Source of the DNA: a virus
DNA length: 56,805 bases
Reading direction: 5' to 3' (one strand)
IMG/VR virus record: IMGVR_UViG_3300046474_000372
Location: 1-56,805 of that record
Shown: positions 18,335 to 35,016 of the stretch, one piece after another
Layout: every line of letters begins with the position of its first letter
Numbering within the stretch: position 1 is the stretch's first letter
Notes under the pieces: generated by a model
Databases searched by the model: none
Seen by the model: the letters and a program-made list of their open reading frames with translations, nothing else
What the model was told of the DNA's origin: nothing
Program-made: the position numbers and the translations under genes

Positions 18335-19120
18335 TTAGCACCCAGGTGGATGCTGATTGTCACCTGAAGCTACGGTAATTGTCGGGCCAGCTGCTGCACC
18401 ATTAGCGTCCTTGTTTGCAACTGCTACTCCGCCTGGACCATTAGCGCTGGTGAAGGATGAACCGTAATAAACAGCAGCTACGTAAGCCTCTGCAGAACTA
18501 CCATTACCCTTATCATTAGAAGCTAGACCAATATAGCCTCTGAATGTTGCTTGCATACGACTATCATACGTAAATTGTCCGATCGTAAACTTGTTTCCTG
18601 CTTGCTTTACAAGCTTGTATTTCTGTTCAAGAATAACTAGTCCAGCAAGAATTTGATCTTCGACAGTGTTTTGACCATTGAACTTAGCTGACAAGCTCTC
18701 ACCAGGGTTTACGCAAAGTCTTGAAACCAAGTCTGGCCTTGCTATTTCAATTACGCACTTACCGAGTTTTTGAGATCCACCCTTTACATGATTCCAACCC
18801 ATACTCTGCATAACGCCCCAAGCCCGTAAGCCCTGATCAACGTTAATAGATTGTTGGCCAATACCTTTCCCTAATACAGATTGCACAGCACTAGCGTTGA
18901 TATAATCCCTTGCTCCAGATGAATTAATGGGTTTTAGAGCAGGGCCTTGGGCATTAACGTTGAAATGGCTCTCATGCTGGATTTGAGCCATTAGCAACTT
19001 AACAATGTCTGTTTCTTTACCCAAGGTATTAGCAAAAAACTGGTTCAGTAAATTGCTAAGCGTAGTGCTACAAATCTGTTTAATCGACGTATCGATAACT
19101 GATCCTGTAGCTGATGCCAT
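18335..19120 (-). CDS. Virion lytic transglycosylase (SLT-like)
   Basis: A 261-aa protein with the soluble lytic transglycosylase signature: catalytic E50 in 'LLMAQIQHESHFN' and 'AWGVMQS' (100-106) for the G-x-M-Q motif. The family cleaves the MurNAc-GlcNAc bond of peptidoglycan. No signal peptide is present, and it lies in the late virion block directly after beta-prime C (1-nt overlap), so a tail-associated enzyme that opens the cell wall at entry is more likely than an endolysin. The C-terminal 50 residues are Gly/Ala/Ser-rich. Confidence 0.7.
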   Translation of the reverse strand: MASATGSVIDTSIKQICSTTLSNLLNQFFANTLGKETDIVKLLMAQIQHESHFNVNAQGPALKPINSSGARDYINASAVQSVLGKGIGQQSINVDQGLRAWGVMQSMGWNHVKGGSQKLGKCVIEIARPDLVSRLCVNPGESLSAKFNGQNTVEDQILAGLVILEQKYKLVKQAGNKFTIGQFTYDSRMQATFRGYIGLASNDKGNGSSAEAYVAAVYYGSSFTSANGPGGVAVANKDANGAAAGPTITVASGDNQHPPGC

Positions 19121-20946
19121 TAATACTGTCCTCCAGGACCTTCACCGAATTCACTACCGAGAATGTACGGAGTGATAGGCTCTGTACTGTGTACGTCTGA
19201 TTCAGCACCTACTGCAGCACTTTCACGAATTGTATTCTTAAGACCTGAGAAGGAAAGCTTTGAAACCCAGTTTTCATCAAGTAGCTTGGCTGTCTTAAGA
19301 CCTGGAACGATCGGAGTTACTGTGAGTCCAGTATTAGCTACGTGAACTGTCTTAACGCCGTGACCCTTAAGTTCATTGATGTGGTTGCCATCAAGAAGAG
19401 TACCTGCTGTAAGTTCTAACACACCCTTTGCGAGTAACTTACCTTCAGCCTTTTCAAGAGGCACTTCACCAGCCGTATTTGTCAGGTATTTTTGAATAGT
19501 GTTTACATCAACCTTCTGGCCCGGTAGAAAGCCTGTCTCACCTGGATCTTGAACTTCTACGTGCTTAATAAGATTCTTAGCAATCATTTCGAAGTGACGG
19601 GGATCAAGGTCAGAACCATAGATACCACGAAGTTCGTGGGCCATGTGAATGCGACCGGCACCAAGGCCTTTCAATGCAACTAACTTACGTGGATTTACAA
19701 CTCCAGTTGAAAGAGTATCGCCCTTAAGAACGTTGTCCCCAACAGCTACTTTAAGATTTTGAACTCGTGGGACGAAGTGCATTTGTTCATTAACAAATAC
19801 CTGATGGTCACCAAGAGGCGTTTGCTTAATTGCTGAAACTACGCCATTGATACCAGTAATCGTGGCTTCATCTTTAAAGTTCTCAGCTGGGTTACGGAGC
19901 AGGTTTGAAGCCTGTTCGTATGAGTTACCCTTACGAGCACCAACTGATGCCTTGTGCTTCGTTGAAAGCATTGACTGAGTCAGAACTTCAGAAACAGATT
20001 GGGCAGCGATTACGCCCACATTTTCACCTATCTCAGCTGGCTTACCATTTCCCATTAGACCATAACATTTCTTGCAAACACCTTGGTGAGCTTCACATGT
20101 AAGTGCGCTGCGAACCTTTATGTTTTTATGACCTGAGCTAACCAGTTCCTTATAATAGGCTTCATCGATGAGATGATTTGTACCTGCCTCGTATCTTCCA
20201 ACAGCACCCTTCTTATCAACGATGGGAAGCAGAATACCATTGGTAGTTCCGCAGTCATCAATCGTGATAGTTTCGTGGAATACCGTTGGGGAAAGTTCCT
20301 TGAACAGAGCACCTGGAAGCGCAGTTGAAAGCTGTGAAAGCACAGTACTACCTCTTCCCATGTAACTCATTGCGAGCATCTCAGCAGGAGACATGCCTTT
20401 TGCAAATGATGACTTAATTACGTATGGGACTAGCTCGCCCTTCAAGTTAATTGACATTAGCGGCGTTGAAGTACCAGTAGCAAGCTGTGTAGGATTACCA
20501 CGAGCGCCTGTACGAGCCATCTTGGCTGCAGTCGATCCTTTGGACAAAAGATGTTCCAGATTTTGCTTTTCTATCTTACCGTTGTATTCCCCGGTCAATG
20601 CACCAAGCTCATCATTTTCTTTAGTTTTCGGAAGTTTCTTTGCAAAAATTTGATGAACCTTTGTTTCAAATTCATCGATAATAGCTTGTCTGTCGTCGCT
20701 TTCGTTAATGTAGTCAGTTAACGGTGTAGTAGCGCCAATTTCAGTAGCCTTGTTAAAGAACTTCTTGCCGAGATCATTAATAACCTCGTGACTATTTTCG
20801 CCACCGTGTTTCAGAAGCACATTTACTAGATCTGAAATACCTTTCTTATCTAGAGGCCTATATAGGTCGTAGTTGTCTCTAGCTTCTTTGGTTGGCAGTT
20901 CGCTTTTTAGCTTTAGTGCCCCGGCTGTTGTGTATTTTTCTGACAT
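19120..20946 (-). CDS. RNA polymerase beta-prime subunit, C-terminal part
   Basis: A 608-aa protein covering the bacterial beta-prime from the region before the bridge helix to near the C-terminus. Visible signatures: 'MARTGARGNPTQLA' (~143-156), 'ITIDDCGT', the second zinc site 'TCEAHQGVCKKCYG' (~283-296) and the bridge/trigger-loop core 'GENVGVIAAQSVSE' followed by LTQSMLSTKHKAS. It completes a beta-prime whose catalytic N-part is at 27503. Jumbo phages such as phiKZ and AR9/PBS1 also carry split RNAP subunits. It has its own late promoter 27 nt upstream. Confidence 0.9.
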   Translation of the reverse strand: MSEKYTTAGALKLKSELPTKEARDNYDLYRPLDKKGISDLVNVLLKHGGENSHEVINDLGKKFFNKATEIGATTPLTDYINESDDRQAIIDEFETKVHQIFAKKLPKTKENDELGALTGEYNGKIEKQNLEHLLSKGSTAAKMARTGARGNPTQLATGTSTPLMSINLKGELVPYVIKSSFAKGMSPAEMLAMSYMGRGSTVLSQLSTALPGALFKELSPTVFHETITIDDCGTTNGILLPIVDKKGAVGRYEAGTNHLIDEAYYKELVSSGHKNIKVRSALTCEAHQGVCKKCYGLMGNGKPAEIGENVGVIAAQSVSEVLTQSMLSTKHKASVGARKGNSYEQASNLLRNPAENFKDEATITGINGVVSAIKQTPLGDHQVFVNEQMHFVPRVQNLKVAVGDNVLKGDTLSTGVVNPRKLVALKGLGAGRIHMAHELRGIYGSDLDPRHFEMIAKNLIKHVEVQDPGETGFLPGQKVDVNTIQKYLTNTAGEVPLEKAEGKLLAKGVLELTAGTLLDGNHINELKGHGVKTVHVANTGLTVTPIVPGLKTAKLLDENWVSKLSFSGLKNTIRESAAVGAESDVHSTEPITPYILGSEFGEGPGGQY

Positions 20947-20972
20947 GGATTTAGAGGTTAAAATTCAATTCC

Positions 20973-20979
20973 TATTTTA
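20973..20979 (-). promoter_or_regulatory. Late promoter motif GCTAAAATA, beta-prime C
   Basis: Minus strand reads TATAGC-TAAAATA-GGAAT, 27 nt before the start at 20946. Only 9 nt separate it from the divergent plus-strand promoter at 20989, so the two cannot easily be occupied together. Confidence 0.6.
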
Positions 20980-20988
20980 GCTATAACC

Positions 20989-20998
20989 TTGGTATAAG
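20989..20998 (+). promoter_or_regulatory. Plus-strand promoter TTGGTATAAG with 5' hairpin
   Basis: Exact motif. The RNA start region folds as AAAGTA-tG-GAAC-aca-GTTC-tg-TACTTT (21000-21026), placing a hairpin at the 5' end just before the ribosome site TAGGAG. Confidence 0.7.
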
Positions 20999-21038
20999 TA
21001 AAGTATGGAACACAGTTCTGTACTTTTAGGAGCCGAGC

Positions 21039-21176
21039 ATGTACAAAGTGGATTATGAGTTTGGAAACTTTTTTGTGTACAAACGCGGGAAGCGTCTTCC
21101 CAAACCTTTCACTTCCTTTAAAGAAGCTGAAGATCACATGGAGGAGCTGAAAAATGTTGGCAGCATACAGAGTTGA
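21039..21176 (+). CDS. Uncharacterised 45-aa protein
   Basis: ATG preceded by TAGGAG. Encodes a basic, aromatic-containing peptide starting MYKVDYEFGNFFVYKRGK. It overlaps the next gene by 23 nt, indicating coupled translation. No family recognised. Confidence 0.55.
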   Translation: MYKVDYEFGNFFVYKRGKRLPKPFTSFKEAEDHMEELKNVGSIQS

Positions 21177-21426
21177 AATGACAGAGTCTGAAGCTGGATG
21201 GGGTCAGCGTCCGGATGGCTATATCTATAGTCTGTCGAAAGAAAAGCTTCAAGTGAGACTGAAAGAGATCGATGCAGCAAAAGAGTACGAAGAGTACTCG
21301 TTCCCTTCCAGCGACGTAGTTCTTGTCGAAATCACCCCTGAATTTCAAGAGTTTTTGGAACTCGGAGATAAAGATCCGTATTGGACCCCTGTCGGCAAGC
21401 ACGCTGGCGACCTCACCCGCAAGTAA
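21154..21426 (+). CDS. Uncharacterised 90-aa protein, tandem paralogue 1
   Basis: Begins MLAAYRVEMTESEAGWGQR, then DGYIYSLSKEKL. The next gene opens with the same plan (MYAVYRVCMKEY...GWVDDGCIYSTQEH), so the two are a tandem duplicate pair of small alpha/beta proteins. GGAG lies upstream. Function unknown. Confidence 0.6.
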   Translation: MLAAYRVEMTESEAGWGQRPDGYIYSLSKEKLQVRLKEIDAAKEYEEYSFPSSDVVLVEITPEFQEFLELGDKDPYWTPVGKHAGDLTRK

Positions 21427-21448
21427 CTTCACATCATAGGGACAAGCT

Positions 21449-21817
21449 ATGTACGCAGTTTACCGTGTTTGCATGAAAGAGTACATTCCCGGCGTAGGTT
21501 GGGTCGATGACGGATGCATTTATTCCACGCAGGAACATGTGGTAGAACAAGAGCGTGATCGTCGCAAGAATCTCTTCTATCAAGAGTCCGGTAACGCTCA
21601 TGGAAGCATTGCCGAAATCGTAATCGTCCACGAATCGTTTTTGCGGGATCTTCACGTTCATCCCATTCTTTCCACTATGAAGGGTCCGCATCCCGCAGAT
21701 CAAGGTCTGTTGAGCGAACACACGGCCAAAGTCAAAGCAGCACAAAGCCTTTATAAGGTTTCTCGCACGGCTGCTCAACGTGCAAGAAATACCAATGTCC
21801 TTTCACCGGTTCTGTAG
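21449..21817 (+). CDS. Uncharacterised 122-aa protein, tandem paralogue 2
   Basis: Shares its first ~45 residues' pattern with the preceding gene and adds a basic helical tail (contains KVKAAQSLYKVSRTAAQRAR). GGGACA precedes the start. The last 86 nt overlap the convergent minus-strand gene at 21732. Confidence 0.6.
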   Translation: MYAVYRVCMKEYIPGVGWVDDGCIYSTQEHVVEQERDRRKNLFYQESGNAHGSIAEIVIVHESFLRDLHVHPILSTMKGPHPADQGLLSEHTAKVKAAQSLYKVSRTAAQRARNTNVLSPVL

Positions 21818-22157: not shown

Positions 22158-23297
22158 ATGGTTAATCTTTCTTCAACTGTAACACCAGTAAGTTCTGCAT
22201 CTGACGAATACTGGACGCAAATCCCTAAGACTTACGACGAACGCAGACAAATCAAGACCCGTCTTGCCAGAGCTTTTCGAGACTGTTTGACCCAAGTCAA
22301 GTTAAGTGGAAATGTTCGTGAACTTAAATCGTATTATAAGCCTAACGAGCAAGCTTATGTAGAATCCATAGAAATGACAATGGATAACTACTCATATAAC
22401 CGTAGCAATAACGAAGATGTTATCAATGCGTTTCTCGTACATATAGGAGCACAAAATTCTGAGCGTAACGAGAAAACTCAAAACTATACTACCTTTATGT
22501 TCGATGGGGTTAAGGTAACGTTATGGCACGTAACTGATGGCAGGCATGCTACAAATAGTAGAGCAGGCGGATACTTAGATGCCCAAGCTCAGATTTTATT
22601 TTTCGGTTACGGAGGTTTGTATAAACTTCTGAATATTGTACTTAAGGAATCGGGCTTTTATCTTTCCGAGGACGTTTGTGTCAAATATGCTGGGGACAAT
22701 GGAAACGGAGTCACAAGTGAGTTTATTGTATCTTCCTCAGGAGACTGTTCAGTAAGATTGCTTGGGATGAGTAATAGGGCGTATTCCGACGCCACCTACG
22801 CAAACTTCAGAAATATCGGAGATATCGTAACGTGGATCCTTAAAGGAAAATACGTTTCATTTTCTGATTTCCACATGAACGAGGCTAAACAGTACACGGG
22901 TCCAGATGATTATTTTGGATGCGACATGTTCCGCCAAGCAGTAGAGTTTCTCAGAACAGCTGACTGGGAAAGTCTCACAACTCCTACTTCACTACCAGTG
23001 ACTTCTAATAAACACAGACTTAAACTGTGGGAAGGCTGGAACCCTGGGTCATATAGAGAATACACGACAATGAGCGAGAATCGTGTAAAGTATTCTCTCA
23101 TCGGCGCTAAGTACAATGATGCTGTGATTCAAGAAGTGACAGGACTAGACTCTGATACTATCCCGTTCAAGACGTTCAAACCTGCATTCGAAGCAGAGAT
23201 TTCTGCAAAGCAAGACTTCGAGTTCTTCTTGCTGAGTTCTTCCGAAGAAACTATTAAAAGCAAAATCCAAGAGACGTACCAGAGACTTACGGCTTAA
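22158..23297 (+). CDS. Uncharacterised 379-aa protein
   Basis: A large soluble protein with mixed alpha/beta pattern and no motif I recognise. 'AFLVHIGAQNSERNEKTQNYTTFMF' and 'VKVTLWHVTDGRHATNSR' are conserved-looking cores, and a C-terminal helix carries many acidic residues. The annotated ATG has no clear ribosome site. It is followed by a strong terminator, so it is transcribed separately from the repair genes downstream. Confidence 0.55.
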   Translation: MVNLSSTVTPVSSASDEYWTQIPKTYDERRQIKTRLARAFRDCLTQVKLSGNVRELKSYYKPNEQAYVESIEMTMDNYSYNRSNNEDVINAFLVHIGAQNSERNEKTQNYTTFMFDGVKVTLWHVTDGRHATNSRAGGYLDAQAQILFFGYGGLYKLLNIVLKESGFYLSEDVCVKYAGDNGNGVTSEFIVSSSGDCSVRLLGMSNRAYSDATYANFRNIGDIVTWILKGKYVSFSDFHMNEAKQYTGPDDYFGCDMFRQAVEFLRTADWESLTTPTSLPVTSNKHRLKLWEGWNPGSYREYTTMSENRVKYSLIGAKYNDAVIQEVTGLDSDTIPFKTFKPAFEAEISAKQDFEFFLLSSSEETIKSKIQETYQRLTA

Positions 23298-23307
23298 GTT
23301 TTAAAAT

Positions 23308-23343
23308 AGCTTAGACATGTTATAATGTGTCTAGGCTTTTTTT
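23308..23343 (+). terminator. Strong Rho-independent terminator
   Basis: AGCTTAGACA pairs with TGTCTAGGCT (10 bp, one G-U) around a 10-nt loop, followed by TTTTTTT. It separates the 379-aa gene from the repair helicase. Confidence 0.85.
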
Positions 23344-23369
23344 AGCTTTTCAAAGGCGTCACTACAAGA

Positions 23370-25304
23370 ATGTTACAACCAAACGACGAATTCCTCTTCA
23401 CCCGTCAGCGGCACGAAGCCGACGTAATGGGCACTCACTACGATCTAAGACTTGTTCATGGAGACAAAGCTTATTCTTTTGCAACGCTTAAAGATATGCC
23501 AAAGCCGGGTGAAATCATTGGCGTATTTGAACAGCCGGTCCATGACCGTGCATACGCATTGAGTAAAAAGGTTGTAATTCCAAAAGGCCAATATGGCGCT
23601 GGAACTACGTATCTAGATTGGGTTCGTAAGGCGATTGTAGCACCACACAGCACAGAGACTATGCTGGTAATCTTCACCAAAGACGGTGAGAAGTTTTTGT
23701 TGAAGAAGTCCCCTACGAAAGATGCCCCTACTTCTTGGATATTTCGAAACATTACCGGAATGGGTAAGAGTCAAAGTCCATATCTCACACGTAAGACTTC
23801 TCTCGAAAAGAAGGCTTGGGCGCTTGACGATTATGCTGGTGGTAACGTATATCTAGAAAAGATTGCCAAGAAGAAACAGGAACAGAAAAGTGACCTACAG
23901 CCTCACCAAATTGACGCTCTTGACCATTTGGATAAAGAAAAAGGCGTTGTCCTTCATCACAGCCTTGGCAGCGGCAAGACAAAGACGTTTCTTAAGGCAG
24001 TACAGAAGTATCAAGAACAGTACCCTAAAAAGAGGGCGCTGGTCATTGCTCCTGCCAGTCTCGTCACGAACGTTGATAAAGAACTTAAGAAGCACAAGAT
24101 TAACTTGGACAGAAATCGACTGGATGTAATGTCCTACGAAAAAGCTGTTAACGATGCACACAAACTACGTAAAAATGATTACTCCATCGCAGTTGCTGAC
24201 GAAGCTCACAGGCTCCGTAACACGAACACTAAACGTACTAGAGAACTCCGAGACATTATCAGCGGTGCTGATCGTCGTTTACTTGCAACTGCTACTGGCA
24301 ATTACAATAAGCTCTCTGATATATCAGCTCTTGTAAACATTGCTGCAAATGATAATGTTCTTCCGGAAGAAGCCAAGAAGATGGAAGATCGTTACACGAA
24401 AGAAGAAATCATTAAGCCAGGTTTCAAAGATAGACTTCTTGGAGCCAAGCCTGAAGCAGTGCGTAGACTCGACCGTAGGAAAGAGCTTAAGGAAATTCTC
24501 AATCAATACGTAAGTTTCTATGACAGTCAGGATGACCCTGCAGCTGCAAAGCACTTCCCGAAGAAGACTGAAAAGATAGTAGAAGTGGAAATGTCTAAGG
24601 AACAGCAGAAGTATTACAAGTTTGCTGAAGGGAAATTACCATTTCTATTACGGATGAAATTGAGGCACAATATGCCTATGGACAAGAAAGAAATGGCAAG
24701 TCTTAATTCATTCTCTGCTGGCGTAAGACAGGTTTCTAACGGTCACAGGCACTTGACGTTAGACGGTAAGGCTGAGTACTCACCTAAGATCCTGAAGGCC
24801 GTAGAGAGCTTACAGAAGGGTATGGCAGAGGATAAGAACTTCAAGGCACTTGTATATTCGAACTACCTCGATGCTGGCCTGCGAGACTATTCTAGAAAAC
24901 TGAAAGAAGCCAAGATTGACCATGCTATCTATGATGGGTCACTGTCAAGAGCAGAGAAGGATCACTTGGTCAAAGAATACAACTCAGGTAAGAAGAAGGT
25001 TCTGCTGATTTCATCTTCAGGTTCAGAGGGGTTGGATTCCAAGGGGACAAAGCGAGTGCAAGTGCTAGAACCTCACTTCAACCCCAGTAAAATCAACCAG
25101 GTAGTTGGGCGTGCTGTACGATTTGGTTCACACGAACATCTGCCAGAAGCGGAGCGCAATGTGCTAGTCGAGCATTTCCACAGCGTACATCCGAAGCCTA
25201 TGTGGGGCAAGACTCCGTATTCGATTGATAAGTATTTGTCAGAGAATTCAGATACTAAAGAAGAACTGTTTGATGAAGTAAAAGGACTAATGAAAAATGA
25301 CTAA
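23370..25304 (+). CDS. LigD-type 3'-phosphoesterase fused to SF2 helicase, internal NKYLEKIA-like tag
   Basis: A 644-aa fusion. Residues 5-80 match the 3'-phosphoesterase (PE) domain of bacterial LigD: H15, 'THYDLRL' (H23, D25, R27), K41, 'VHDRAY' (H58, Y62) and 'IPKGQYGAGT' (70-79). PE domains clean 3' ends by removing phosphate or ribonucleotides. Residues 159-166 read NVYLEKIA, a copy of the head-protein tag. Residues 176-600 are an SF2/SNF2-like helicase: LQPHQ (176-180), GSGKT (200-204), DEAH (277-280), 'LLATATGN' (motif III) and 'VVGRAVRFGS' (motif VI). Its last codons overlap the ligase gene, so both act together in DNA end repair. Confidence 0.8.
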   Translation: MLQPNDEFLFTRQRHEADVMGTHYDLRLVHGDKAYSFATLKDMPKPGEIIGVFEQPVHDRAYALSKKVVIPKGQYGAGTTYLDWVRKAIVAPHSTETMLVIFTKDGEKFLLKKSPTKDAPTSWIFRNITGMGKSQSPYLTRKTSLEKKAWALDDYAGGNVYLEKIAKKKQEQKSDLQPHQIDALDHLDKEKGVVLHHSLGSGKTKTFLKAVQKYQEQYPKKRALVIAPASLVTNVDKELKKHKINLDRNRLDVMSYEKAVNDAHKLRKNDYSIAVADEAHRLRNTNTKRTRELRDIISGADRRLLATATGNYNKLSDISALVNIAANDNVLPEEAKKMEDRYTKEEIIKPGFKDRLLGAKPEAVRRLDRRKELKEILNQYVSFYDSQDDPAAAKHFPKKTEKIVEVEMSKEQQKYYKFAEGKLPFLLRMKLRHNMPMDKKEMASLNSFSAGVRQVSNGHRHLTLDGKAEYSPKILKAVESLQKGMAEDKNFKALVYSNYLDAGLRDYSRKLKEAKIDHAIYDGSLSRAEKDHLVKEYNSGKKKVLLISSSGSEGLDSKGTKRVQVLEPHFNPSKINQVVGRAVRFGSHEHLPEAERNVLVEHFHSVHPKPMWGKTPYSIDKYLSENSDTKEELFDEVKGLMKND

Positions 25305-26661
25305 CAAGTACCTAGAGAAAATGGCAGCTCAGCTTAAAGAACCGGCAAGTCCGGAAAGTCTAGGCTTTGACTTGTCAAAAGGTGATGAGAAAGAACTGTA
25401 CAAGTGGATGACAGCCGTCACTCTTTTCTCTAGGCCTATTCAACGTTCAGTCGCATCTTTAGCTGCTAAACACATGGCTTCGAAGGGGTTTTATTCCCCG
25501 GAAGCTGTTGAGTCTGCAGGCTGGGAAAATCTACGTGATGCATTAGTTCAAGGCCATTACGGACGTTTCGATGAGTCAACAGCTACTACGATGCTTGCTC
25601 AGGCCAAACACCTGAGAGAGAAGTACGGGACTATTAATAATCTGATAGATAATCATACTCCTGAAGAAATTCGTGCTGAGATTCAGTCCTTCAGAGGTAT
25701 TGGTCCTTTGGGGAGTCAGTTGTTTGTAGAAGGTATCAATCCGTACCTTAGTCAAATTCAGAAGCAAGCTTCAATCGACACATACGTCAGACACAAATAC
25801 GTAGAAGGCGATTGGACAGCACTCGAACATCCAGTTGCATCAAAGAAATGGGACGGGGCCCACTTTGTGCTTACCGTACAGCCTGATGGCTCTTTAACTT
25901 ACCATTCACGTAGGCCAAGTGTAAAAGGTGGATTCCCAGAGCGTTCAGCACAGCTTCCACATCTGGCTAAACCAATGCCAGAATACGTTGGTAACCAGTT
26001 TGCGGTAGAGCTTGTACACACCGGACTTGCAAAGTCTGAAACCGAGTCGCACCCTACAGTTTCAGGTATTCTTAATTCTCTACCTCCGAGATCTATTGCA
26101 ACTCAAGCTGAGAAAGGCCCAGTACGTGCTGTGCTAATTGACGTTAAGAATCCGAATCTCGCAACATACAAAGATAAAGTTGAGTATCTTCAAAAGTTCG
26201 AAAAGGACTACGGAAATTCTGATTTGATGTTTGCACCTCACTTAGAGTACGGGGTAGATGCGATCAACAAATACCTAGATACTATCAAGAGCCAGAAAGG
26301 CGAAGGCTTAATAGTTGCGGACTACGCTAAGCCTGAGACAGAATCAGTACGATACAAAGTAAAGAACTACGTAACGTATAATCTGAAGGTTATTGGCCAG
26401 CAACAAGAAATCGACATCAAGGGCAACCCAAAAGATAGTATGGGTGCATTGATTTTGGCTGATGCCTCAGGACGTATGGTAGGAAAGGTTGGAACTGGGT
26501 TTGATAGAGACACTAGAATCCAAGCCTGGAAGAATCCAGCCATGTTTAATGAGAAGCTAATTCAAGTAAAAGCGTATCCTCCTAGCGTTCCAGGTGGTCA
26601 AATCAGATTCCCAGTTTACAATGGGTTTTCTGATGGGGACCTTGACCGAGTAAATCTCTAA
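25297..26661 (+). CDS. HhH-GPD glycosylase-like domain fused to ATP-dependent DNA ligase, NKYLEKMA-tagged
   Basis: A 454-aa protein. Residues 1-10 are MTNKYLEKMA, the head-protein tag. Residues ~30-170 look like an HhH-GPD (EndoIII/AlkA-type) domain: 'FRGIGPLGSQLFVEG' hairpin at 132-146 and 'SIDTYVRHKYV' (159-169), whose D161 fits the catalytic Asp of V-D-T-H; the EndoIII lysine is replaced, so a monofunctional glycosylase or a non-catalytic DNA reader is likely. Residues ~176-454 are a nucleotidyltransferase ligase: K184-W-D-G187 (motif I), 'FAVELVHTG' (III), 'EGLIVADY' (IV), 'RYKVKNY' (V). Overlaps the helicase gene by 8 nt. Confidence 0.8.
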   Translation: MTNKYLEKMAAQLKEPASPESLGFDLSKGDEKELYKWMTAVTLFSRPIQRSVASLAAKHMASKGFYSPEAVESAGWENLRDALVQGHYGRFDESTATTMLAQAKHLREKYGTINNLIDNHTPEEIRAEIQSFRGIGPLGSQLFVEGINPYLSQIQKQASIDTYVRHKYVEGDWTALEHPVASKKWDGAHFVLTVQPDGSLTYHSRRPSVKGGFPERSAQLPHLAKPMPEYVGNQFAVELVHTGLAKSETESHPTVSGILNSLPPRSIATQAEKGPVRAVLIDVKNPNLATYKDKVEYLQKFEKDYGNSDLMFAPHLEYGVDAINKYLDTIKSQKGEGLIVADYAKPETESVRYKVKNYVTYNLKVIGQQQEIDIKGNPKDSMGALILADASGRMVGKVGTGFDRDTRIQAWKNPAMFNEKLIQVKAYPPSVPGGQIRFPVYNGFSDGDLDRVNL

Positions 26662-27457: not shown

Positions 27458-27500
27458 AGGAGAGCACCGGACAACCCTGCGGGTGTCTCTCCTCTTTTTT
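27458..27500 (+). terminator. Rho-independent terminator
   Basis: AGGAGAG-CACC pairs with GGTG-(T)-CTCTCCT, 11 bp with one bulge, followed by CTTTTTT. It faces the convergent beta-prime gene ending at 27503. Confidence 0.85.
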
Positions 27501-27502
27501 GA

Positions 27503-28672
27503 TTAGCCGTGGCTAGTGATTTTTAGCGGAGTGTTCTCGTTGATTTCGCCCTTGCGTAGAGCTTCGAGAGCATCTTCTTCTGTTGCGAATTCACGAGGAG
27601 CTTGAGTTGTATCAGGTTCAGTAATTGCCATAGAACCAATAACGGCTTCGTGGCCAGGTGCTACCATTGATGCGCCTTGGCCTTTACGATAGTCGTAAAT
27701 GTGTTGTTGTGGCAGAAGCTTTTGTTTAGCTTCTTCAACTGCTTCTGGGGTCATCGGTACGTGCAACGTTAAAGCATCGCCATCGAAGTCACCTGCATAC
27801 ATAGGAAGATGCAGAGGATTGATACCAAGTGTCTTGCCCTCAATAGGCACAGGGAAGTGAGCCGTAATGTTGGTTCTCATTAGAGTAGGAGCCCGGTTAA
27901 GAATAACAGGAACCTGCTTAATCATCTTGTTAAAGCTGTTCGTTGCAGCTACATCCCTATTTTCTACAGCTTTTCTGGCAGCAATCAAATCATAGCCGTT
28001 ACGAACCAAGTCACGAATGATGTGGAACTCATACATTGTCCACAGCATATCCTTTGGTGCAGCAACTTCGTTGAAGCCAAGATTAGGCTCTGCATAAATA
28101 GTTGCTCTACCTGAGAAGTCTTGTTTCTTCTTAAGAAGTTTGTTGTGGAAGAATCCGCCTTTAGGCCCAGTATCTCCAGAGATTTGCTGGATGTAACCTT
28201 TTAGTTCCTTTCCTCGTGCGCTCCCAGATACGGCATCACCGAGACCGAAAATAGCTTTGACGCCATTATAAGCATCTTTGCGTTCATTAACCAATTGATC
28301 ATGAGTAAGGTCATCCTTGATATCCTTTAGAGAATTGTTGATGGTCATATGGTCACGGTAAAGAGTATTCACATCAGCGAACTCAATACGATTACCACCC
28401 ATAGGAATACTAGGACGAACTAATGGAGGTGTTACTGGAATATTGTGAAGCACATAAGCTGACTCAGGGTTCAAGCCCACTTTTTTTAGCCCAGCTAAGT
28501 ACTTGATTTTTTTAACAATTGCGTCTCTCTTAGACGGAGACTTAGTTTCTTTGATCTCAGCCTTAAGCGCATTAATTTGCGATTCTACATCGATGCTTGA
28601 TAGCATTTGATGGAATGCATCACCTGAAACTGCTAGAGTTTCTGGATCTACGGGTTCATTTGGTTTGCTCAT
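27503..28672 (-). CDS. RNA polymerase beta-prime subunit, catalytic N-terminal part
   Basis: A 389-aa protein with the active-site magnesium loop: 'YAGDFDGDALTLHVP', D295, D297 and D299. Upstream are 'IPVTPPLVRPSIPMGGNR', 'KKKQDFSGRATI' and 'VPVILNRAPTLMR', all core beta-prime blocks; downstream is 'MVAPGHEAVIGSMAIT'. It begins at the equivalent of about E. coli residue 300, so the first zinc finger and much of the clamp are absent and no gene in this window supplies them. It continues functionally in the gene at 19120. A TTAAAATTT sequence 8 nt before the ATG is a weak late-promoter variant. Confidence 0.9.
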   Translation of the reverse strand: MSKPNEPVDPETLAVSGDAFHQMLSSIDVESQINALKAEIKETKSPSKRDAIVKKIKYLAGLKKVGLNPESAYVLHNIPVTPPLVRPSIPMGGNRIEFADVNTLYRDHMTINNSLKDIKDDLTHDQLVNERKDAYNGVKAIFGLGDAVSGSARGKELKGYIQQISGDTGPKGGFFHNKLLKKKQDFSGRATIYAEPNLGFNEVAAPKDMLWTMYEFHIIRDLVRNGYDLIAARKAVENRDVAATNSFNKMIKQVPVILNRAPTLMRTNITAHFPVPIEGKTLGINPLHLPMYAGDFDGDALTLHVPMTPEAVEEAKQKLLPQQHIYDYRKGQGASMVAPGHEAVIGSMAITEPDTTQAPREFATEEDALEALRKGEINENTPLKITSHG

Positions 28673-28690
28673 GATTCAAATTTTAAGATG

Positions 28691-29320
28691 TTAGCCGTTC
28701 ATCATTAGTGTTCTTCTTGCTCTAGCAGGGCCTGTGTACGCTGCATTCAAGTACTTTGCTGCACCTATCCATACATTACCTCCTCCTCCTGAATCAGTCT
28801 GAGTAAGAGTTATATCTAATTTCAAAGTTTGCTTTGGAGAATTTGCACTGTAAGTAATGGTGGAAAACCAATATCCAGTGTTTTGTGTCAATGCCTGGTT
28901 TTGAGTAAGCACTGGAGTACTTCCGTCAGAAAGAGTAGCTACTAATCTTGAAGCTCCACTTGAAACTCCCCAATATATAACTGCTGTTCTAGGAGTAGTG
29001 TCTGCCGGAAATGAAATGCTAAACCCTTGACCCGGTATAGAGTCGCTTGCAGGAGATACGAAAGTACCTTCACGTTTAGAAGTTCCCGATGCTAGAGGGG
29101 TTCCTCCAGTCCAAGTATAGCCTAAGCCGAAATTGAAGCCAGCAAAGGAAGCGCTTGTACCCAGAATAGTCGGTAAGCTTATTGTTGAGCCTGCACCGCT
29201 CTTACGATTAGGCGCCGTAGCAGATTGAGGAAATTCTATCCAGTCTGTTTGAGCAGGAGTTGTAAGATTGAATACCTCAGTTCCAGTACAAGCTGTAACC
29301 GATCCGCTTAAAGTACCCAT
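28691..29320 (-). CDS. Fibre-region beta-sandwich protein
   Basis: A 209-aa, Ser/Thr/Gly-rich beta protein without signal peptide. Residues ~80-190 ('QGFSISFPADTTPRTAVIYW...YWFSTITYSANSPKQTLKLDI') have the strand pattern of a jelly-roll or carbohydrate-binding sandwich. It overlaps its upstream neighbour by 1 nt. Location in a run of fibre-like genes suggests a tail fibre tip or capsid surface protein that meets the host surface. Confidence 0.55.
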   Translation of the reverse strand: MGTLSGSVTACTGTEVFNLTTPAQTDWIEFPQSATAPNRKSGAGSTISLPTILGTSASFAGFNFGLGYTWTGGTPLASGTSKREGTFVSPASDSIPGQGFSISFPADTTPRTAVIYWGVSSGASRLVATLSDGSTPVLTQNQALTQNTGYWFSTITYSANSPKQTLKLDITLTQTDSGGGGNVWIGAAKYLNAAYTGPARARRTLMMNG

Positions 29321-29853
29321 TATGATAGAGTTCCTAGAAGGTTAAATCTGACGTTTGCAAGAGTAGCATCAGCCGATATAGGGCCTACTATTTCAAATAC
29401 GTCACCTATTGCAAAACTTACTGCAGAAACAAAAGTTAAAGTAGCTACTGTTCCACTGGCTGCGAATACAGCAGTACCAATCGAAGAACCGTTTTTAGTA
29501 AAAGTGATAGTTGTTGATGCCGTAGCAGCAGTTTTAGAATCAACTCTACTTCCCGTTAATCCAGATGGGAAAGAGAATGCTCGACGTATATTTATAGATG
29601 CTAGTGTTTCGGTATTTGCAAAACTTCCCTGCACGAACAAAATAACATCGAACGGTACGCTGCCACCACCTCCAGCTGTATTTATAGTTACGTCCCCAGT
29701 TCCTTCATCAGCGCCTGTCCAACTAAAAGTAATACCAGTACCAGCTATTACCTTAGTAATAAGCGCGCTTCCTGCCGTAGTAGTGTTTAAATCAGTTCTA
29801 AGTACTGTTCCATCTGCGCCTTGTGCCCCAAGATTAAGCTGTGTACGTGCCAT
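29320..29853 (-). CDS. Fibre-like protein
   Basis: A 177-aa protein opening with 'LNLGAQGADGTVLRTDLNTT' and 'TGITFSWTGADEGTGDVTIN', sequences typical of the thin repetitive shafts of tail fibres. The C-terminal half ('TKNGSSIGTAVFAASGTV') is a small beta domain. Co-transcribed with its neighbours. Confidence 0.6.
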   Translation of the reverse strand: MARTQLNLGAQGADGTVLRTDLNTTTAGSALITKVIAGTGITFSWTGADEGTGDVTINTAGGGGSVPFDVILFVQGSFANTETLASINIRRAFSFPSGLTGSRVDSKTAATASTTITFTKNGSSIGTAVFAASGTVATLTFVSAVSFAIGDVFEIVGPISADATLANVRFNLLGTLS

Positions 29854-30093
29854 TTATTTTCTCGTTTTACGTTCAGGCTGAATCATCTCTTTCAGCTCTG
29901 TATTAGACTCTTCTAATTTTAGAATTCTTTCCTTGAGAAGGCTGATTAACTCAGCATCCTGTAGAACTCTTTGTGTAAGACGTTCTTTCTGAATTTCTAA
30001 CATCCATACGTTAGAATATAAAACGCCCAGCTCGTTTTGCATCTTTCCGAGCCAGGCGCTTTGTTCTGGTACAACTTGAGTGTTATCTGTCAT
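29854..30093 (-). CDS. Small coiled-coil protein
   Basis: A 79-aa protein. Residues ~20-75 form one long helix with heptad spacing of Leu ('LISLLKERILKLEESNTELK'), predicted as a coiled coil. It overlaps the upstream fibre gene by 4 nt (ATGA) and the downstream fibre gene starts adjacent to it. It could be a fibre assembly chaperone or oligomerisation protein. Confidence 0.55.
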   Translation of the reverse strand: MTDNTQVVPEQSAWLGKMQNELGVLYSNVWMLEIQKERLTQRVLQDAELISLLKERILKLEESNTELKEMIQPERKTRK

Positions 30094-31187
30094 TTCCAGT
30101 AATATGCTCTTAGCTTGTCTCCGGTCAACGGAGCGAACAGCATAGTGATAGCCGTCCCGCTAATAGTATAATCGTTTCCTGCACCAGGTTCAAGTAGCAT
30201 ACCATTCAAGAACAGTTCAAGCGATAAAACTTGAGGGGCATTTGCAAGAGCAAACGAAGTGTTTACACCGTTAATAGTTCCAGTCGGAGTCTCGTTATTT
30301 ACTTGATTGCCATATTTCAGGAATCCAGTACCTGCATTATTATTGACGGTCATTGCACCAGCGGTAGAAATAGTTACATCACCTGAAGCGCTTACCCAAG
30401 TAGGCTGGTTAGAACCATTTGATACGATAAGCTGTGCAGAAGTGCTTGAGGCAGAAATACCGACTCCGCCAGCAGCTACAGTTAGTAGGCCACCAGATGC
30501 AGCAACTACTTGAACGTTGTTAGAACCATCGAAGCCAATACCATTACCGTTTTTAACAGCAAATGAAGAACCAGTTAGGCTAAGACCTTGACCGTTGCTG
30601 TAAGATGCGCCTGAAGTGTCTTGTGACCAGGTATTAGACGTAGTATCGACTGTTACGTTTGTAACTGTGGTACAGAACCACTTTGAGTTCTTATATGTCG
30701 TGCCTTCTGGTTCAACTAGAACGTAAGCCCCTTCTTTTTGAACACTTGCTGCCGCCCAGTCAGTAGGACGAGTCCAAGCAGTGCTTTGAACAACCCAAAG
30801 ACCATTCTGCGAACCTGTTGTTTGAGCAGTTGCAAGAACACGGTCACCAGATACGAGGGAAACTCCGTCGATAGTCTGCGTGCCGCTAAGTGTAATATTT
30901 GAAGCTGCAAGTGCTCTAACTGCGTTTTTGAAACTTAGACCATTAGCTAGAGCATCAACATATGATTTGCTAGCTACGTCAGTTCCGTTTGTAGGTGTAC
31001 CAACGTTGGTAATTGAGAAGCCACCCATATTAAGGGAAGCAGCCATAGAGACAGTACCGGTTGAACGAATAAACGAAGCACCGTCTTGAAGTTGAGATGT
31101 TGGAAGATTTAGACCGGAGACTAGCGCTGATGCTGGAATAGATCCAGCCATTATCTGAGAACCGCCCCGAATTAGTGTTTGAGCCAT
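30090..31187 (-). CDS. Tail fibre protein
   Basis: A 365-aa protein. Residues ~1-75 ('NMGGFSITNVGTPTNGTDVA...YVDALANG') match the phage fibre motif in which 'I-x-N-V-x-x-P-x-x-x-T-D-A-x-x-K-x-Y-V-D' recurs. Residues ~85-190 are a conserved fibre domain ('VSLVSGDRVLATAQTTGSQN'); the rest is repetitive beta shaft with a C-terminal 'VLSLELFLNGMLL' head domain also seen in the gene at 31260. Likely a host-recognition or baseplate-attached fibre. Transcribed from 31245 through a hairpin leader. Confidence 0.7.
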   Translation of the reverse strand: MAQTLIRGGSQIMAGSIPASALVSGLNLPTSQLQDGASFIRSTGTVSMAASLNMGGFSITNVGTPTNGTDVASKSYVDALANGLSFKNAVRALAASNITLSGTQTIDGVSLVSGDRVLATAQTTGSQNGLWVVQSTAWTRPTDWAAASVQKEGAYVLVEPEGTTYKNSKWFCTTVTNVTVDTTSNTWSQDTSGASYSNGQGLSLTGSSFAVKNGNGIGFDGSNNVQVVAASGGLLTVAAGGVGISASSTSAQLIVSNGSNQPTWVSASGDVTISTAGAMTVNNNAGTGFLKYGNQVNNETPTGTINGVNTSFALANAPQVLSLELFLNGMLLEPGAGNDYTISGTAITMLFAPLTGDKLRAYYWK

Positions 31188-31203
31188 TTGTGGCTCTCCT
31201 TTT

Positions 31204-31230
31204 AAAAGAGGCCCGATAGTAGCTGGACCT
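31204..31230 (-). promoter_or_regulatory. Leader hairpin with U-run before fibre gene
   Basis: Minus-strand RNA AGGUCC-(AGCUACUAUC)-GGGCCU, 6 bp with one U-G pair, followed by CUUUU and then the ribosome site AAAAGGAGAG. Same arrangement as the leader before the decoration gene: promoter, hairpin with U-run, then Shine-Dalgarno. Confidence 0.5.
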
Positions 31231-31244
31231 TAGCTTACAAAATG

Positions 31245-31251
31245 TATTTTA
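31245..31251 (-). promoter_or_regulatory. Late promoter motif GTTAAAATA, fibre gene
   Basis: Minus strand reads AAAAGT-TAAAATA-CATTT, 58 nt before the start at 31187 and just after the upstream stop codon. Confidence 0.6.
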
Positions 31252-31259
31252 ACTTTTGC

Positions 31260-31631
31260 TTATTTTATATAAGTCAGCATGATAAGGTCATCGGTATACA
31301 GATCTAAAGACTCTGGCAATACCAATACATTATTTATGACTTCATAAGCCGTTCTGGATTGGAGAAATCCATTTATAAACAGCATTGTTCCCGCCGTCGG
31401 GGAATCAGGTAAGGATAGGTTTTGAGCACCGTCTGCAGACAGAGTAAACTCTGCTTGCTCTAGGGTAAACGATGATGGTTCAGACCTATCTCCAGCTGAT
31501 GTCGGTGGAGCTACAACCCCTACCGGAGTGGCAGGAGGTGTAGTTACTATCTGATCTATATCGTATTCATCATCTACGATTTCAGCAAGGTCAGATAGTC
31601 CCCGTATAAACCTATTGGGATTCGTGATCAT
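31260..31631 (-). CDS. Small fibre/virion protein
   Basis: A 123-aa protein. The C-terminal 50 residues ('GTMLFINGFLQSRTAYEVIN...DLYTDDLIMLTYIK') resemble the small beta domain ending the adjacent fibre ('LELFLNGMLLEPGAGNDYTI'). The N-terminal half is acidic and Pro-rich. It overlaps the end of RNAP beta by 20 nt, so it is coupled to it. Confidence 0.55.
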   Translation of the reverse strand: MITNPNRFIRGLSDLAEIVDDEYDIDQIVTTPPATPVGVVAPPTSAGDRSEPSSFTLEQAEFTLSADGAQNLSLPDSPTAGTMLFINGFLQSRTAYEVINNVLVLPESLDLYTDDLIMLTYIK

Positions 31632-34600
31632 TATGCCCTTCCGCTTCGCTACTTATGTTAGCACTATTCACTTTTATAGTTTTAATGTGCTGACCGTTCG
31701 ACGTATTGTGCAGAGCAAATGAACCATCATCCAACTTCTTGATACCGATTGAGCCTTGGATAATACCGTCGAACTCGCTTGACTTCAGGCCTAGAAGACT
31801 CTTAATAGGCCGTTCAAACACTGGGTTTGGTAAGGATTCTGCTAGTTCGTAGTGTGTCCACTGCTTACCTCTTAATCCACCTGTCGTACCTGGATCGTAC
31901 AAACCACCCTTTTCAGGTTCAAGATTCTTGGCACTCAGAAGTTCTGGTGAAAGAATCTTGCCATTTGACATACCTAGAATGTCTTGGTCTGTCATAGGAG
32001 ATATTGTCAGCTTACCGTCTTTAATGCTTGTCTTGATACCAGACCCACTCAGATAATCAAAGAACTTCTGAGTTGAAAATGTCATCTTAGGTTTTGGCAA
32101 AGCTTGACCAGATCTAAACTTAGCCCAGTACTCTGAGTTTTCCTGTGACTTAAGCGTCGAGATTTCCTTAAGGTTCTTACGAGCATTTGAGCCAAGAAGA
32201 CCAAGCATTTCCATGTACCCAACTGACTTAGAGCCTTCTTCACCGCCCTTCGTAGGTTGAAGTACATTATCGTAGCTTCCAACGTTACGAGCTGACCAGT
32301 TTTGGTCGGTAGTCTTGTACAGCTTCAGAAAGTACTGAGGGCCTGTAAGAATCTTGCCTAGATCTTTACCAGTCTTAGGATCCACCATCATATCAGTGTC
32401 GCTTACGCCTAGTTTATCAAGTTCACTCTTAAGCTGAGAAACGTTGCTTGACTTGGCAAAGTTATGCACAAAGTAAGGTTTCCCAGTCACCTTAGCAATC
32501 TTGCCAGCAGCAGTTTCCATAAGCTGACCCAAGTTAATACGTGAAGTTACTGAAGCGGGGTTAAGCAGAATATCAACCGGAGCGCCAGTCTCTTTCTTGA
32601 ACGGCATTTCGTTATCAGAAAGAATCAGTGAAACAATACCTTTATTACCATGAAGTCCTGTTAACTTATCGCCAATCTCAAGCGGCTTAACTGAACGTAC
32701 TAGAAGACGAATATTCTTGCCTTCAGTATGTGCATCTACTACAGTACCATTCTCTTCATGAGTCCAAGCTTCGCTAACTACTCGGTAAGGATTTACCAGC
32801 GATTTGTGAAGACGTGCAAGCATTCGGTCTTCTGACGTAGGCTCACGTTTTTCAAGCACAGCATACACTGGATCGCCGTGATTCATAGTTGCACCCACCT
32901 TAGCAAAGCCACGTTCATCTAGTTTCTCAAGCTGTTCTTTAGTGAACCTGCCCGGGAAGTGGCGAGCTAGCAAAGTCTTGCTCATAGTTGAGATAGGCTG
33001 TACTGCATAGTCAACCTTATATGCGTGATGGCTGCTTAGACTATCAGCACATGAACGGCTAATTACCAAACCGTCTTCGTGGTTGTAGCCCTTATACGGC
33101 ATGTACGCAACTTCAAGATTTTTACCCAGCGCTAGTTCTCCGTCAACTGTGTAGTTGTTATCAGAAATAGGCTGACCATCTGCAACTCTATCGCCAACCT
33201 TAACGAGAGGCTTTTCATCATCAAGGAAACCCTTCATGTTGAACGGTAGATTTTTAACTAGATCTACTTTGTGAGTACGGCCATCTACGTCGTCTTTGAT
33301 ATGGATTTGTGACTTGGTGACGTTTGTGATTGTTCCAGCTACAGGTGCAATCGTGCTAATAACGTTGCCGATTGCCTTAGTGAAACTTACTCCACCACCA
33401 GTAACAGTCTGTACAAGAGGCTTCTCACGATTAACAAGTGAAAGCGCCTGGGGAATAGCTTTACCTGCCATCGTTAGACGGCCAGGGTGATTACTATTCA
33501 AGAACGGTACGAGGTTAGTCGTAATCGTGTACATGTCTGTCGTATCTGCAAGCCAGTAATCTACTTGGTTTACAGGAACTTCTTTAAGCGCACCCCGAAC
33601 CTGAGCTTGTACTGTTTTCTTGCCTTCTTGATGTGGAAAGCCGATTGTGCTTGTCATCATTTCCTGCACTGACAGGTAATGTTGCTTTCCTTGTTTATCA
33701 AGAACTCGTGAATACAGATTTCCACTATCATCACGACGAGCGGAAATAGTGAAACGTTGGTCAATACCAGCGTGACCTGATTCCGGCGTACGGCTAGGAT
33801 CGATAATGCCAAGGTGAGATGGGTCGATATCTCGTGCTGACATAGGTACGCCACGGTCTGAAGCAATACCGCCTTCACCGGCACCTAGTACAGTGACCTT
33901 TCCGACGCTTTCCAGGCTCTCTAGCGGGTTCGTTTCCGAAGGAGTAGATACCAGGTTAGAATCGATGATGTAGCCCGTCATAACCTTGTTATAGGGCTTG
34001 CTGACCACTACGTCACGCAGGGATGGATTCTTGGTCTTGTCAAGGCCTGCTAGAAGCTTACGACGGATGCTTGGGAGCATTTCGTGCTTGCTGAAACGAG
34101 TACGGATGAAGTCGGGCAGATTCTGAACACGTTTAAATTGCAGAGAATCTCGATTATCTTCTTCACGGTCACCTGCGTGTACTTGAACAAGGTTCTTCAT
34201 AGCACGTAGAATCGATTCAGAATTAACTGAACCAAGTGACTTTCCTAGCGTAACCAAAGTTGTTTGCGGAGAAAGAGACGATGCTTCCATTGATTCACGG
34301 AGTTGCATGATCTTTTCTTCTGTACTGGCTGTTGGCTTTTGCTTACCAGTTGACACTAGCTTGCTGTATAGATCATTGATGATCTTTTGCTCTTTCCCTG
34401 CTGAGGAAGCAAGGTTGGCTTCCCAAACCTGCGCAGGAACATACTGACTTACTTCTTTGGGACCAATGCCAAAAACTCTTGAGACCAACGGTCCAAGAGG
34501 AATAGTTGAAGACGAGCTTGCAGGATGTACTGAAAACTGGAATGTCTGTGGATCAAGCGTAATGGAGAAGCTTCGACCTGAGCCAGTGTTGAAGTGAGAC

Positions 34601-35016
34601 TCTAGTTCGCCAGTTTCTTTACTACGAGTATAAACTCCAGGGTTAAGCTGGAGCTGATTTGCTACTGAGTAGTTATTACCCTTATAAAGCATCGTGTGCT
34701 TTGGAGTAATGTGGAATGCATCCATCAAAGAGAAATTCTTATTCTCATCAATTACTTTGCCAGTAGCCTTGTCGATCAGTTTGATGTGACCACGAATAGG
34801 ATATGCAAGAGACTTTGATTTAAGAATCGCATCTTTCTCATCAAGGTGAGTGAACTCTTTTGGTTCGGTGCGAATATCTTCAAGAGTAAGAACATAATTC
34901 TTACCCTCGATAGGGAATTGAGAAGCGATGCCTTGCATTAAGGAAGCATCCACACGTTGGCGAATTTCCTTAGGCGATGAAAAGATAAGTTGTAGATTAT
35001 CGGCTGGTGTCGGCAT
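31612..35016 (-). CDS. RNA polymerase beta subunit
   Basis: An 1134-aa protein (E. coli beta is 1342). Diagnostic blocks: 'YKGYNHEDGLVISRS' (~640-654) and 'GDKLTGLHGNKGIVS' (~781-795), the beta sequences lining the active centre, and 'VDILLNPASVTSRINLGQLM' close after. It is unsplit, unlike the beta of phiKZ-like phages, while its partner beta-prime is split. No NKYLEKIA tag. It lies between portal and fibre genes, coupled to a 98-aa gene by a 20-nt overlap. With beta-prime and the sigma-like factor at 54350 it would form a phage polymerase that could read the TAAAATA or TTGGTATAAG promoters. Confidence 0.92.
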   Translation of the reverse strand: MPTPADNLQLIFSSPKEIRQRVDASLMQGIASQFPIEGKNYVLTLEDIRTEPKEFTHLDEKDAILKSKSLAYPIRGHIKLIDKATGKVIDENKNFSLMDAFHITPKHTMLYKGNNYSVANQLQLNPGVYTRSKETGELESHFNTGSGRSFSITLDPQTFQFSVHPASSSSTIPLGPLVSRVFGIGPKEVSQYVPAQVWEANLASSAGKEQKIINDLYSKLVSTGKQKPTASTEEKIMQLRESMEASSLSPQTTLVTLGKSLGSVNSESILRAMKNLVQVHAGDREEDNRDSLQFKRVQNLPDFIRTRFSKHEMLPSIRRKLLAGLDKTKNPSLRDVVVSKPYNKVMTGYIIDSNLVSTPSETNPLESLESVGKVTVLGAGEGGIASDRGVPMSARDIDPSHLGIIDPSRTPESGHAGIDQRFTISARRDDSGNLYSRVLDKQGKQHYLSVQEMMTSTIGFPHQEGKKTVQAQVRGALKEVPVNQVDYWLADTTDMYTITTNLVPFLNSNHPGRLTMAGKAIPQALSLVNREKPLVQTVTGGGVSFTKAIGNVISTIAPVAGTITNVTKSQIHIKDDVDGRTHKVDLVKNLPFNMKGFLDDEKPLVKVGDRVADGQPISDNNYTVDGELALGKNLEVAYMPYKGYNHEDGLVISRSCADSLSSHHAYKVDYAVQPISTMSKTLLARHFPGRFTKEQLEKLDERGFAKVGATMNHGDPVYAVLEKREPTSEDRMLARLHKSLVNPYRVVSEAWTHEENGTVVDAHTEGKNIRLLVRSVKPLEIGDKLTGLHGNKGIVSLILSDNEMPFKKETGAPVDILLNPASVTSRINLGQLMETAAGKIAKVTGKPYFVHNFAKSSNVSQLKSELDKLGVSDTDMMVDPKTGKDLGKILTGPQYFLKLYKTTDQNWSARNVGSYDNVLQPTKGGEEGSKSVGYMEMLGLLGSNARKNLKEISTLKSQENSEYWAKFRSGQALPKPKMTFSTQKFFDYLSGSGIKTSIKDGKLTISPMTDQDILGMSNGKILSPELLSAKNLEPEKGGLYDPGTTGGLRGKQWTHYELAESLPNPVFERPIKSLLGLKSSEFDGIIQGSIGIKKLDDGSFALHNTSNGQHIKTIKVNSANISSEAEGHNDHESQ

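What the first reader, a model, noticed from the sequence alone, without database searches (positions are those of the whole stretch)
19120..35016. Phage multisubunit RNA polymerase with unsplit beta, beta-prime cut in two, and no visible beta-prime clamp segment
Beta is one 1134-aa gene, while beta-prime is divided after the active-site loop region (27503-28672 and 19120-20946), with 6.5 kb and several unrelated genes between. The N-part starts at the equivalent of about E. coli residue 300. The first zinc finger and clamp are not encoded anywhere in this window. This differs from phiKZ-like sets, where beta is split too. It could represent another lineage of phage polymerase.
Basis: partly seen in the sequence, partly recalled or inferred. 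Interest (0 to 1): 0.7.

Follow-up and report, generated by a model that had tools for sequence, protein, structure and literature searches.

The report
Phage RNA polymerase split from fused ancestor
This virus encodes its own cell-like RNA polymerase in three separate genes; relatives make the same enzyme as one long protein chain, so the pieces are broken parts of a fused enzyme, and the part thought to be missing is joined to the end of the first piece.

Summary
The three ORFs are real and are RNA polymerase (RNAP) subunits, but the headline claim, no beta-prime clamp segment, is wrong. The last ~130 residues of the 1134-aa 'beta' ORF are the N-terminal clamp segment of beta-prime, without its zinc finger (profile-profile probability 97.4; controls 0.6 or less). 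The 389-aa piece starts near E. coli residue 176, not 300. In Salmonella phage Arash and Vibrio phage D69 the window's 'beta' and its 389-aa piece are one ~1525-aa ORF. In 74 of 119 family contigs, beta and the whole of beta-prime are one ORF of 2016-2649 aa. The window's pieces sum to 2131 aa; the fused median is 2125. Trees place the three-piece set as one clade inside two-piece relatives, with fused ones outside. Best reading: an alpha-less phage core RNAP, once a single chain, split twice and now reassembled from three chains, probably used with the phage's own sigma factor. AR9-type polymerase falls outside the family. It belongs to the wider phage RNAP assemblage described in 2020 (mReC), but fails that study's capsid, motif and length markers. 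I found no report of the fused or permuted-split forms in the papers searched. Activity is inferred, not shown.

The parts
31612..35016 (-). 1134-aa ORF: complete beta core (res 1-985) followed in frame by the N-terminal clamp segment of beta-prime
   Evidence: Pfam Rpb2_2/3/6; relatives 51-54%; AF2 model pLDDT 82.8, res 9-935 match bacterial beta chains, Z 32-35
31615..32061 (-). beta-prime N-terminal clamp segment (E. coli beta-prime ~2-155, zinc finger deleted) as the C-terminal tail of the beta ORF
   Evidence: PF04997 hit 31891-32013; hhalign prob 97.4, controls; homologous segment in L022 model superposes on E. coli beta-prime from residue 17
27503..28672 (-). 389-aa beta-prime N piece (E. 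coli ~176-555): rest of clamp, DPBB with DFDGD
   Evidence: PF00623, PF04997 157-266; numbering; one ORF with the beta piece in Arash and D69
19120..20946 (-). 608-aa beta-prime C piece (E. coli ~556-1407): four-cysteine zinc site (232, 284, 291, 294), altered trigger loop, C-terminus
   Evidence: PF04998; separate 611-616 aa ORF in the other 3-piece contigs where it is complete
28691..31631 (-). structural-type genes lying between the two halves of what is one gene in Arash
   Evidence: PHROG head decoration / tail fibre hits, DUF4183; sequence; no Rfam intron
22158..26661 (+). opposite-strand genes (helicase, ligase and a 379-aa ORF) between the beta-prime N and C pieces, which argue against co-transcription
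54350..55135 (-). 261-aa phage sigma factor (regions 2 and 4), likely partner of the polymerase (inferred)
   Evidence: PF04542 and PF04545 over cut-off; PHROG sigma E 9.5e-25
35304..37199 (-). portal protein upstream of the beta ORF (context, as in Arash)
   Evidence: PHROG portal 5.7e-7; Arash gp204

Best explanation
The window carries a complete phage-encoded, alpha-less core RNAP whose beta and beta-prime were once one polypeptide. In an ancestor shared with Arash and the Vibrio phages the chain was cut between the DPBB part and the C part of beta-prime (near E. coli 555/556). In the window's own clade it was cut again inside the clamp (near E. coli 155-176). The cut therefore leaves the first clamp segment attached to beta. 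The three chains (1134 + 389 + 608 = 2131 aa) are expected to fold together non-covalently into the same enzyme, probably directed to phage promoters by the phage's own sigma factor. Shown: homology, order, join and split points, branching order, no alpha gene detected, a sigma gene. Inferred: activity, non-covalent assembly, the sigma partnership.
For: Arash gp206 and D69_0261 hold beta + tail + beta-prime N in one ORF. 74 of 119 distinct family contigs hold all four segments in one complete ORF, median 2125 aa; this set was drawn partly with a fused query. L025 carries Rpb2_2, 2_3, 2_6, Rpb1_1, 1_2, 1_3, 1_5 in order on 2045 aa. Tail vs bacterial beta-prime: prob 97.4; vs bacterial beta 0.3; five column shuffles 0.6 or less. 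The L022 model of tail plus beta-prime N superposes on E. coli beta-prime 17-551, Z 23.6. C20 tree: the five labels need 4 changes, the minimum; three-piece one clade (99*). L016 and L021 have only 63 nt between pieces, with a terminator-like hairpin (sequences; scan of L021). The C piece is a separate ORF in 14 of 14 records searched. Alpha PF01193: 0 of 13 records, controls 13 of 14. Sigma: 11 of 13. DFDGD, the beta GDK..HGNKG motif and four zinc cysteines are kept.
Against: The window tail alone, without its family, aligns only weakly (prob 4.3, E 0.0095). The trigger loop has lost the residues at E. coli R933 and G938/G939, and DFDGD is preceded by AG rather than NA, so catalysis may be altered. 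Some deep nodes among fused lineages are weak (80-92; 7.7 and 8.8). The terminator-like scan finds no more sites in the L021 region than shuffles do (3 against a mean of 3.9). The window record is an incomplete linear contig. No expression or protein data.
Confidence: 0.85

Rival explanations
1. One reading: unsplit beta plus a beta-prime that truly lacks its clamp N-part, the clamp being absent or replaced.
For: No cysteine-bearing first zinc finger in the family.
Against: Tail homology, structure match and one-ORF continuity in relatives.
Confidence: 0.02
2. The pieces are rejoined after synthesis or transcription by a group I intron, split intein or ribosome bypassing, so the mature enzyme is not in three chains.
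For: A group I intron sits in the beta gene of Vibrio phage D181; LAGLIDADG inserts occur in fused relatives; the L016/L021 spacer keeps frame (63 nt).
Against: No Rfam match in the window; the spacer holds coding genes and opposite-strand genes lie before the C piece; the pieces end and start with too few extra residues for canonical intein halves (inferred); the L021 spacer holds a terminator-like hairpin.
Confidence: 0.04
3. The pieces are decaying remnants and the phage uses host RNAP with its sigma factor.
For: Altered trigger loop and AGDFDGD; many phages with a sigma gene use host RNAP (recalled).
Against: Open full-length frames in the three-piece contigs, 49-54% identity to Arash and the Vibrio phages, metal-binding and zinc residues kept.
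Confidence: 0.08
4. It is a phiKZ/AR9-type polymerase with a variant split.
For: AR9 joins the family at 83 in one quick tree; beta-prime is also cut after its DPBB.
Against: Family is a clade without AR9 (98*); beta unsplit; sigma present; AR9 branch 3.25 makes its place unsure.
Confidence: 0.05

Closest known systems
RNAP of Salmonella phage Arash (OQ632216) and Vibrio phages D69, D148, D181
   Same: All three pieces homologous at about 49-54%; C piece separate
   Different: Beta, clamp segment and beta-prime N are one ORF in Arash and D69; interrupted by a group I intron in D181
mReC (multimeric RNAP-encoding Caudovirales), PMC7481178
   Same: Deep phage RNAP clade apart from Bacteria; probably overlaps this family's fused members (73 of 81 fused carry NADxDGD, counted from the table)
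   Different: mReC capsid marker PF07068 not found in 13 of 13 family records but found in 3 of 8 of the other phage lineage; the window fails the NADxDGD and 800-aa criteria (passages); fusion and splits not described in the parts read
phiKZ / AR9 jumbo-phage virion and non-virion RNAPs
   Same: Several chains, no alpha, beta-prime cut after the DPBB (PMC7598289 passages)
   Different: Their beta is split and their clamp lies in the beta-prime N subunit (PMC8287921 passages); no sigma; AR9 outside this family
Cyanobacterial/plastid split beta-prime (rpoC1/rpoC2)
   Same: Break after the DPBB; tail plus beta-prime N superposes on gamma 8-558, Z 23.6 (9dvs_D)
   Different: The gamma chain has 617 modelled residues, so the phage break is roughly 60 residues earlier; gamma has its own N-terminus
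Natural rpoB-rpoC fusions (Helicobacter, Wolbachia; recalled)
   Same: Beta C-end joined to beta-prime N-end
   Different: Cellular, with alpha and zinc finger; not split again

Membership tests
Multisubunit (two-barrel) DNA-dependent RNAP | DFDGD in beta-prime and conserved beta GDK..HGNKG lysine motif | tested here: met
   YAGDFDGD and GDKLTGLHGNKG; Pfam domains
This phage family (fused or split beta/beta-prime) | Beta C-end joined in frame to the zinc-finger-less beta-prime clamp segment | tested here: met
phiKZ/AR9-type RNAP | Beta split into two or more chains | tested here: not met
   Beta core in one ORF
phiKZ/AR9-type RNAP | Beta-prime split after the DPBB | tested here: met
   Break near E. 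coli 555/556; exact site compared only roughly
phiKZ/AR9-type RNAP | No recognisable sigma factor | tested here: not met
   Sigma regions 2 and 4 at 54350-55135
phiKZ/AR9-type RNAP | Branches with AR9 | tested here: inconclusive
   Family a clade at 98*; AR9 next to it at 83 on a very long branch
mReC | RNAP clade distinct from Bacteria | tested here: met
   Bacteria 99.5, phage side 100; 100*/100*
mReC | Major capsid protein of PF07068 | tested here: not met
   0 of 13 family records; the search works in 3 of 8 others; window head protein is phrog_2522 with no Pfam hit
mReC | NADxDGD motif and subunits of at least 800 aa | tested here: not met
   AGDFDGD; beta-prime pieces 389 and 608 aa (criteria)
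Cellular RNAP core | Alpha subunit | tested here: not met
   PF01193 0 of 13 records, controls 13 of 14; omega not tested

The most novel reading that the evidence does not exclude
Multi-piece phage RNAPs in general, phiKZ/AR9 included, are not primordial multi-part enzymes but products of repeated gene fission of a single-chain beta/beta-prime phage polymerase; this family preserves the one-, two- and three-piece stages, and AR9 is its sister.
Probability: 0.15. Interest if true: 0.85.

Novelty: new variant of a known kind. Interest (0 to 1): 0.62.

Why it matters
Whether the many-piece polymerases of large phages are relics from before beta and beta-prime existed (argued in PMC7824862, passages read) or later breakages is open. 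Here one family shows the same enzyme as one, two and three chains, and the tree reads as a series of breakages within it. One break lies in the same inter-domain region as the cyanobacterial and phiKZ breaks, so a shared break there is weak evidence of shared descent. It also gives a natural single-chain cell-type RNAP of about 2100 residues, attractive for structure and engineering, and cultured relatives (Arash, Vibrio D69) in which to test it.

Tried and rejected
Missing clamp: rejected (tail homology). Group I intron or intein rejoining in the window: no Rfam match, spacer holds genes. phiKZ membership: not met. Filing under mReC: capsid, motif and length markers fail, though part of the fused clade may have been in that study; its contig lists are in supplements I could not open. 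L057 first looked like an independent split, but its two internal stops are both TGA in one frame, so it may be recoded; it was left out of the second tree. Whether the rudder is present was looked at in the alignment and left open. PHROG families 24349/25354 (best hits) are unannotated and were not traced further. AR9's C subunit did not align well enough to place its break exactly.

Rows dropped before counts: L059-L065 (other lineage), L001-L002 (window itself), L073-L076 (cellular-record fragments), and 16 loci that repeat a contig already counted. The second viral scan kept the best 80 of 373 relatives of a fused query, so the 74 of 119 overstates the share of fused forms. In the second tree 12 of 54 rows were left out for time, for long branches and for L057. 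In one search the script's last line misprints the NADxDGD count as 0; the table above it gives 41 + 32 = 73 of 81. Searches for a print report of fused forms found none; subscription journals are mostly not held.
Full report
What is there. The record is a 56.8-kb linear virus contig. It encodes 1134-aa, 389-aa and 608-aa ORFs on the minus strand at the stated places, with RNAP domains in order: Rpb2_2/3/6; Rpb1_1 (part) and 1_2; Rpb1_5. The two beta-prime ORFs are 6,556 nt apart, and the ORFs between them include opposite-strand helicase and ligase genes, so they are unlikely to be co-transcribed.

The missing clamp is not missing. A whole-record scan with PF04997 hit twice: profile 157-266 in the 389-aa ORF, and profile 6-46 near the end of the 'beta' ORF (31891-32013, E 4e-4, under the cut-off). 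A profile of 134 family tails (duplicate loci included) aligns with the bacterial beta-prime N-terminus at probability 97.4, E 3.6e-11. Against whole beta-prime it finds the same place (95.8); against bacterial beta it gives 0.3; five column shuffles give 0.6 or less. The window tail alone is weak (4.3), so the case rests on the family. In E. coli numbers the tail spans about 2 to 155-175 with the zinc-finger stretch deleted; the 389-aa piece about 176-555; the 608-aa piece 556-1407. A model of tail plus beta-prime N from relative L022 (pLDDT 84) superposes on E. coli beta-prime 17-551 (8pid_J, Z 23.6, rmsd 16.3, 484 aligned) and on cyanobacterial gamma 8-558 (9dvs_D, Z 23.6, rmsd 16.7, 477 aligned). 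The high rmsd reflects domain movement, I infer. The window's own beta model (pLDDT 82.8) matches bacterial beta over residues 9-935 (9dvs_C, Z 34.4, rmsd 4.2, 879 aligned); its tail was not covered by those rows.

Relatives. tblastn found four phages with about 49-54% identity for every piece: Salmonella phage Arash and Vibrio phages D69, D148, D181. In Arash and D69 the 1134- and 389-aa pieces are one ORF of about 1525 aa, with a separate C piece. IMG/VR gave 59 relatives with the window query and 373 with a four-member profile, 80 kept. In 119 distinct contigs: 74 have all four segments in one complete ORF (2016-2649 aa); 9 more are the same but cut by a contig end; 13 are of the window's three-piece type (the C piece of most lies outside the held locus but was found on the contig); 5 are two-piece, with 3 more probable (L034, L051, L072); the rest are fragments or special cases (D181, L057). 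The window's pieces sum to 2131 aa, Arash's to 2131, and the fused median is 2125.

Order of events. The beta/clamp join is shared by the fused, two-piece and three-piece forms, and cellular beta-prime is continuous at both later breaks, so the fusion came first and both breaks are derived. Trees agree. With LG+C20, the labels fused, two, three, cell and other phage need four changes, the least possible; the three-piece set is one clade (99*), the family one clade (100*), and fused lineages branch outside. Some deep nodes are weak (80-92, or 7.7 and 8.8). In L016 and L021 the second break is only 63 nt and holds a terminator-like hairpin; in the window it is 2.9 kb with tail-fibre-like genes, in L013 8 kb. 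The break therefore came before, or independently of, the inserted genes. The clamp break lies near where Thermus beta-prime carries a long extra domain (recalled; Thermus ranges are about 285 residues longer), so it is probably a tolerant site.

How it likely works. Metal-binding DFDGD, the beta GDK..HGNKG motif and four zinc cysteines are kept. No alpha gene was detected in any of 13 records, as in phiKZ-type enzymes. A sigma factor with regions 2 and 4 lies at 54350-55135, and 11 of 13 records have one. The simplest mechanism is a three-chain core that folds as one enzyme and is guided by the phage sigma; the sigma link is inferred. The split lineage has a changed trigger loop (SEVLTQSMLSTKH in the window, GERATQLAMKAFH in fused L025), keeping the histidine but losing the residues at E. 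coli R933 and G938/G939, so its chemistry may differ.

Compared with what is known. phiKZ/AR9 enzymes have a split beta, their clamp in the beta-prime N subunit and no sigma (PMC7598289, PMC8287921, PMC7824862: passages). AR9 falls outside the family in a tree with a very long AR9 branch. The nearest described group is mReC (PMC7481178: abstract, section 3 parts 1-2, passages). Our trees reproduce its phage clade apart from Bacteria, but its capsid marker was found in none of 13 family records and in 3 of 8 of the sister lineage. Its filters (800 aa, NADxDGD) would exclude the window type and admit most fused ORFs. That paper mentions fusion only for crAssphage (term search of its main text). 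A hydrothermal virus RNAP 'at the base' of mReC (PMC10159854, passages) may be a relative; this was not tested.

Verdict.

Noticed in passing
L163:4533-4813 (Vibrio phage D181): Group I intron (RF00028, 100.7 bits) followed by a homing endonuclease gene inside the beta part of the RNAP gene.
   Followed up: yes
L041, L048, L051, L054 RNAP ORFs: In-frame inserts of about 320-640 aa with LAGLIDADG domains (L041 also an intein splicing domain, below cut-off; its insert lies close to the catalytic motif).
   Followed up: partly
L179:610-1461 (sister contig of the window's phage): 283-aa protein with a stretch resembling the beta-prime second zinc-finger region (E about 4e-7), no Pfam or PHROG match; perhaps an RNAP domain co-opted for another use.
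   Followed up: partly
L057:10109-16018: Fused RNAP frame broken only by two in-frame TGA codons; possible stop-codon recoding.
   Followed up: partly
L059-L065, L005, L006: A second phage RNAP lineage with separate beta-prime and beta genes, beta-prime upstream of beta where both are held; some carry the mReC capsid marker PF07068.
   Followed up: partly
L072 (Desulfovibrio sp. An276 contig): Two-piece family RNAP in a bacterial assembly, with its C piece on another contig: a host clue.
   Followed up: partly
window upstream of 35016, 28672, 20946: No clear Shine-Dalgarno sequence before the three RNAP starts, although a neighbouring structural gene (start 31187) has one.
   Followed up: no
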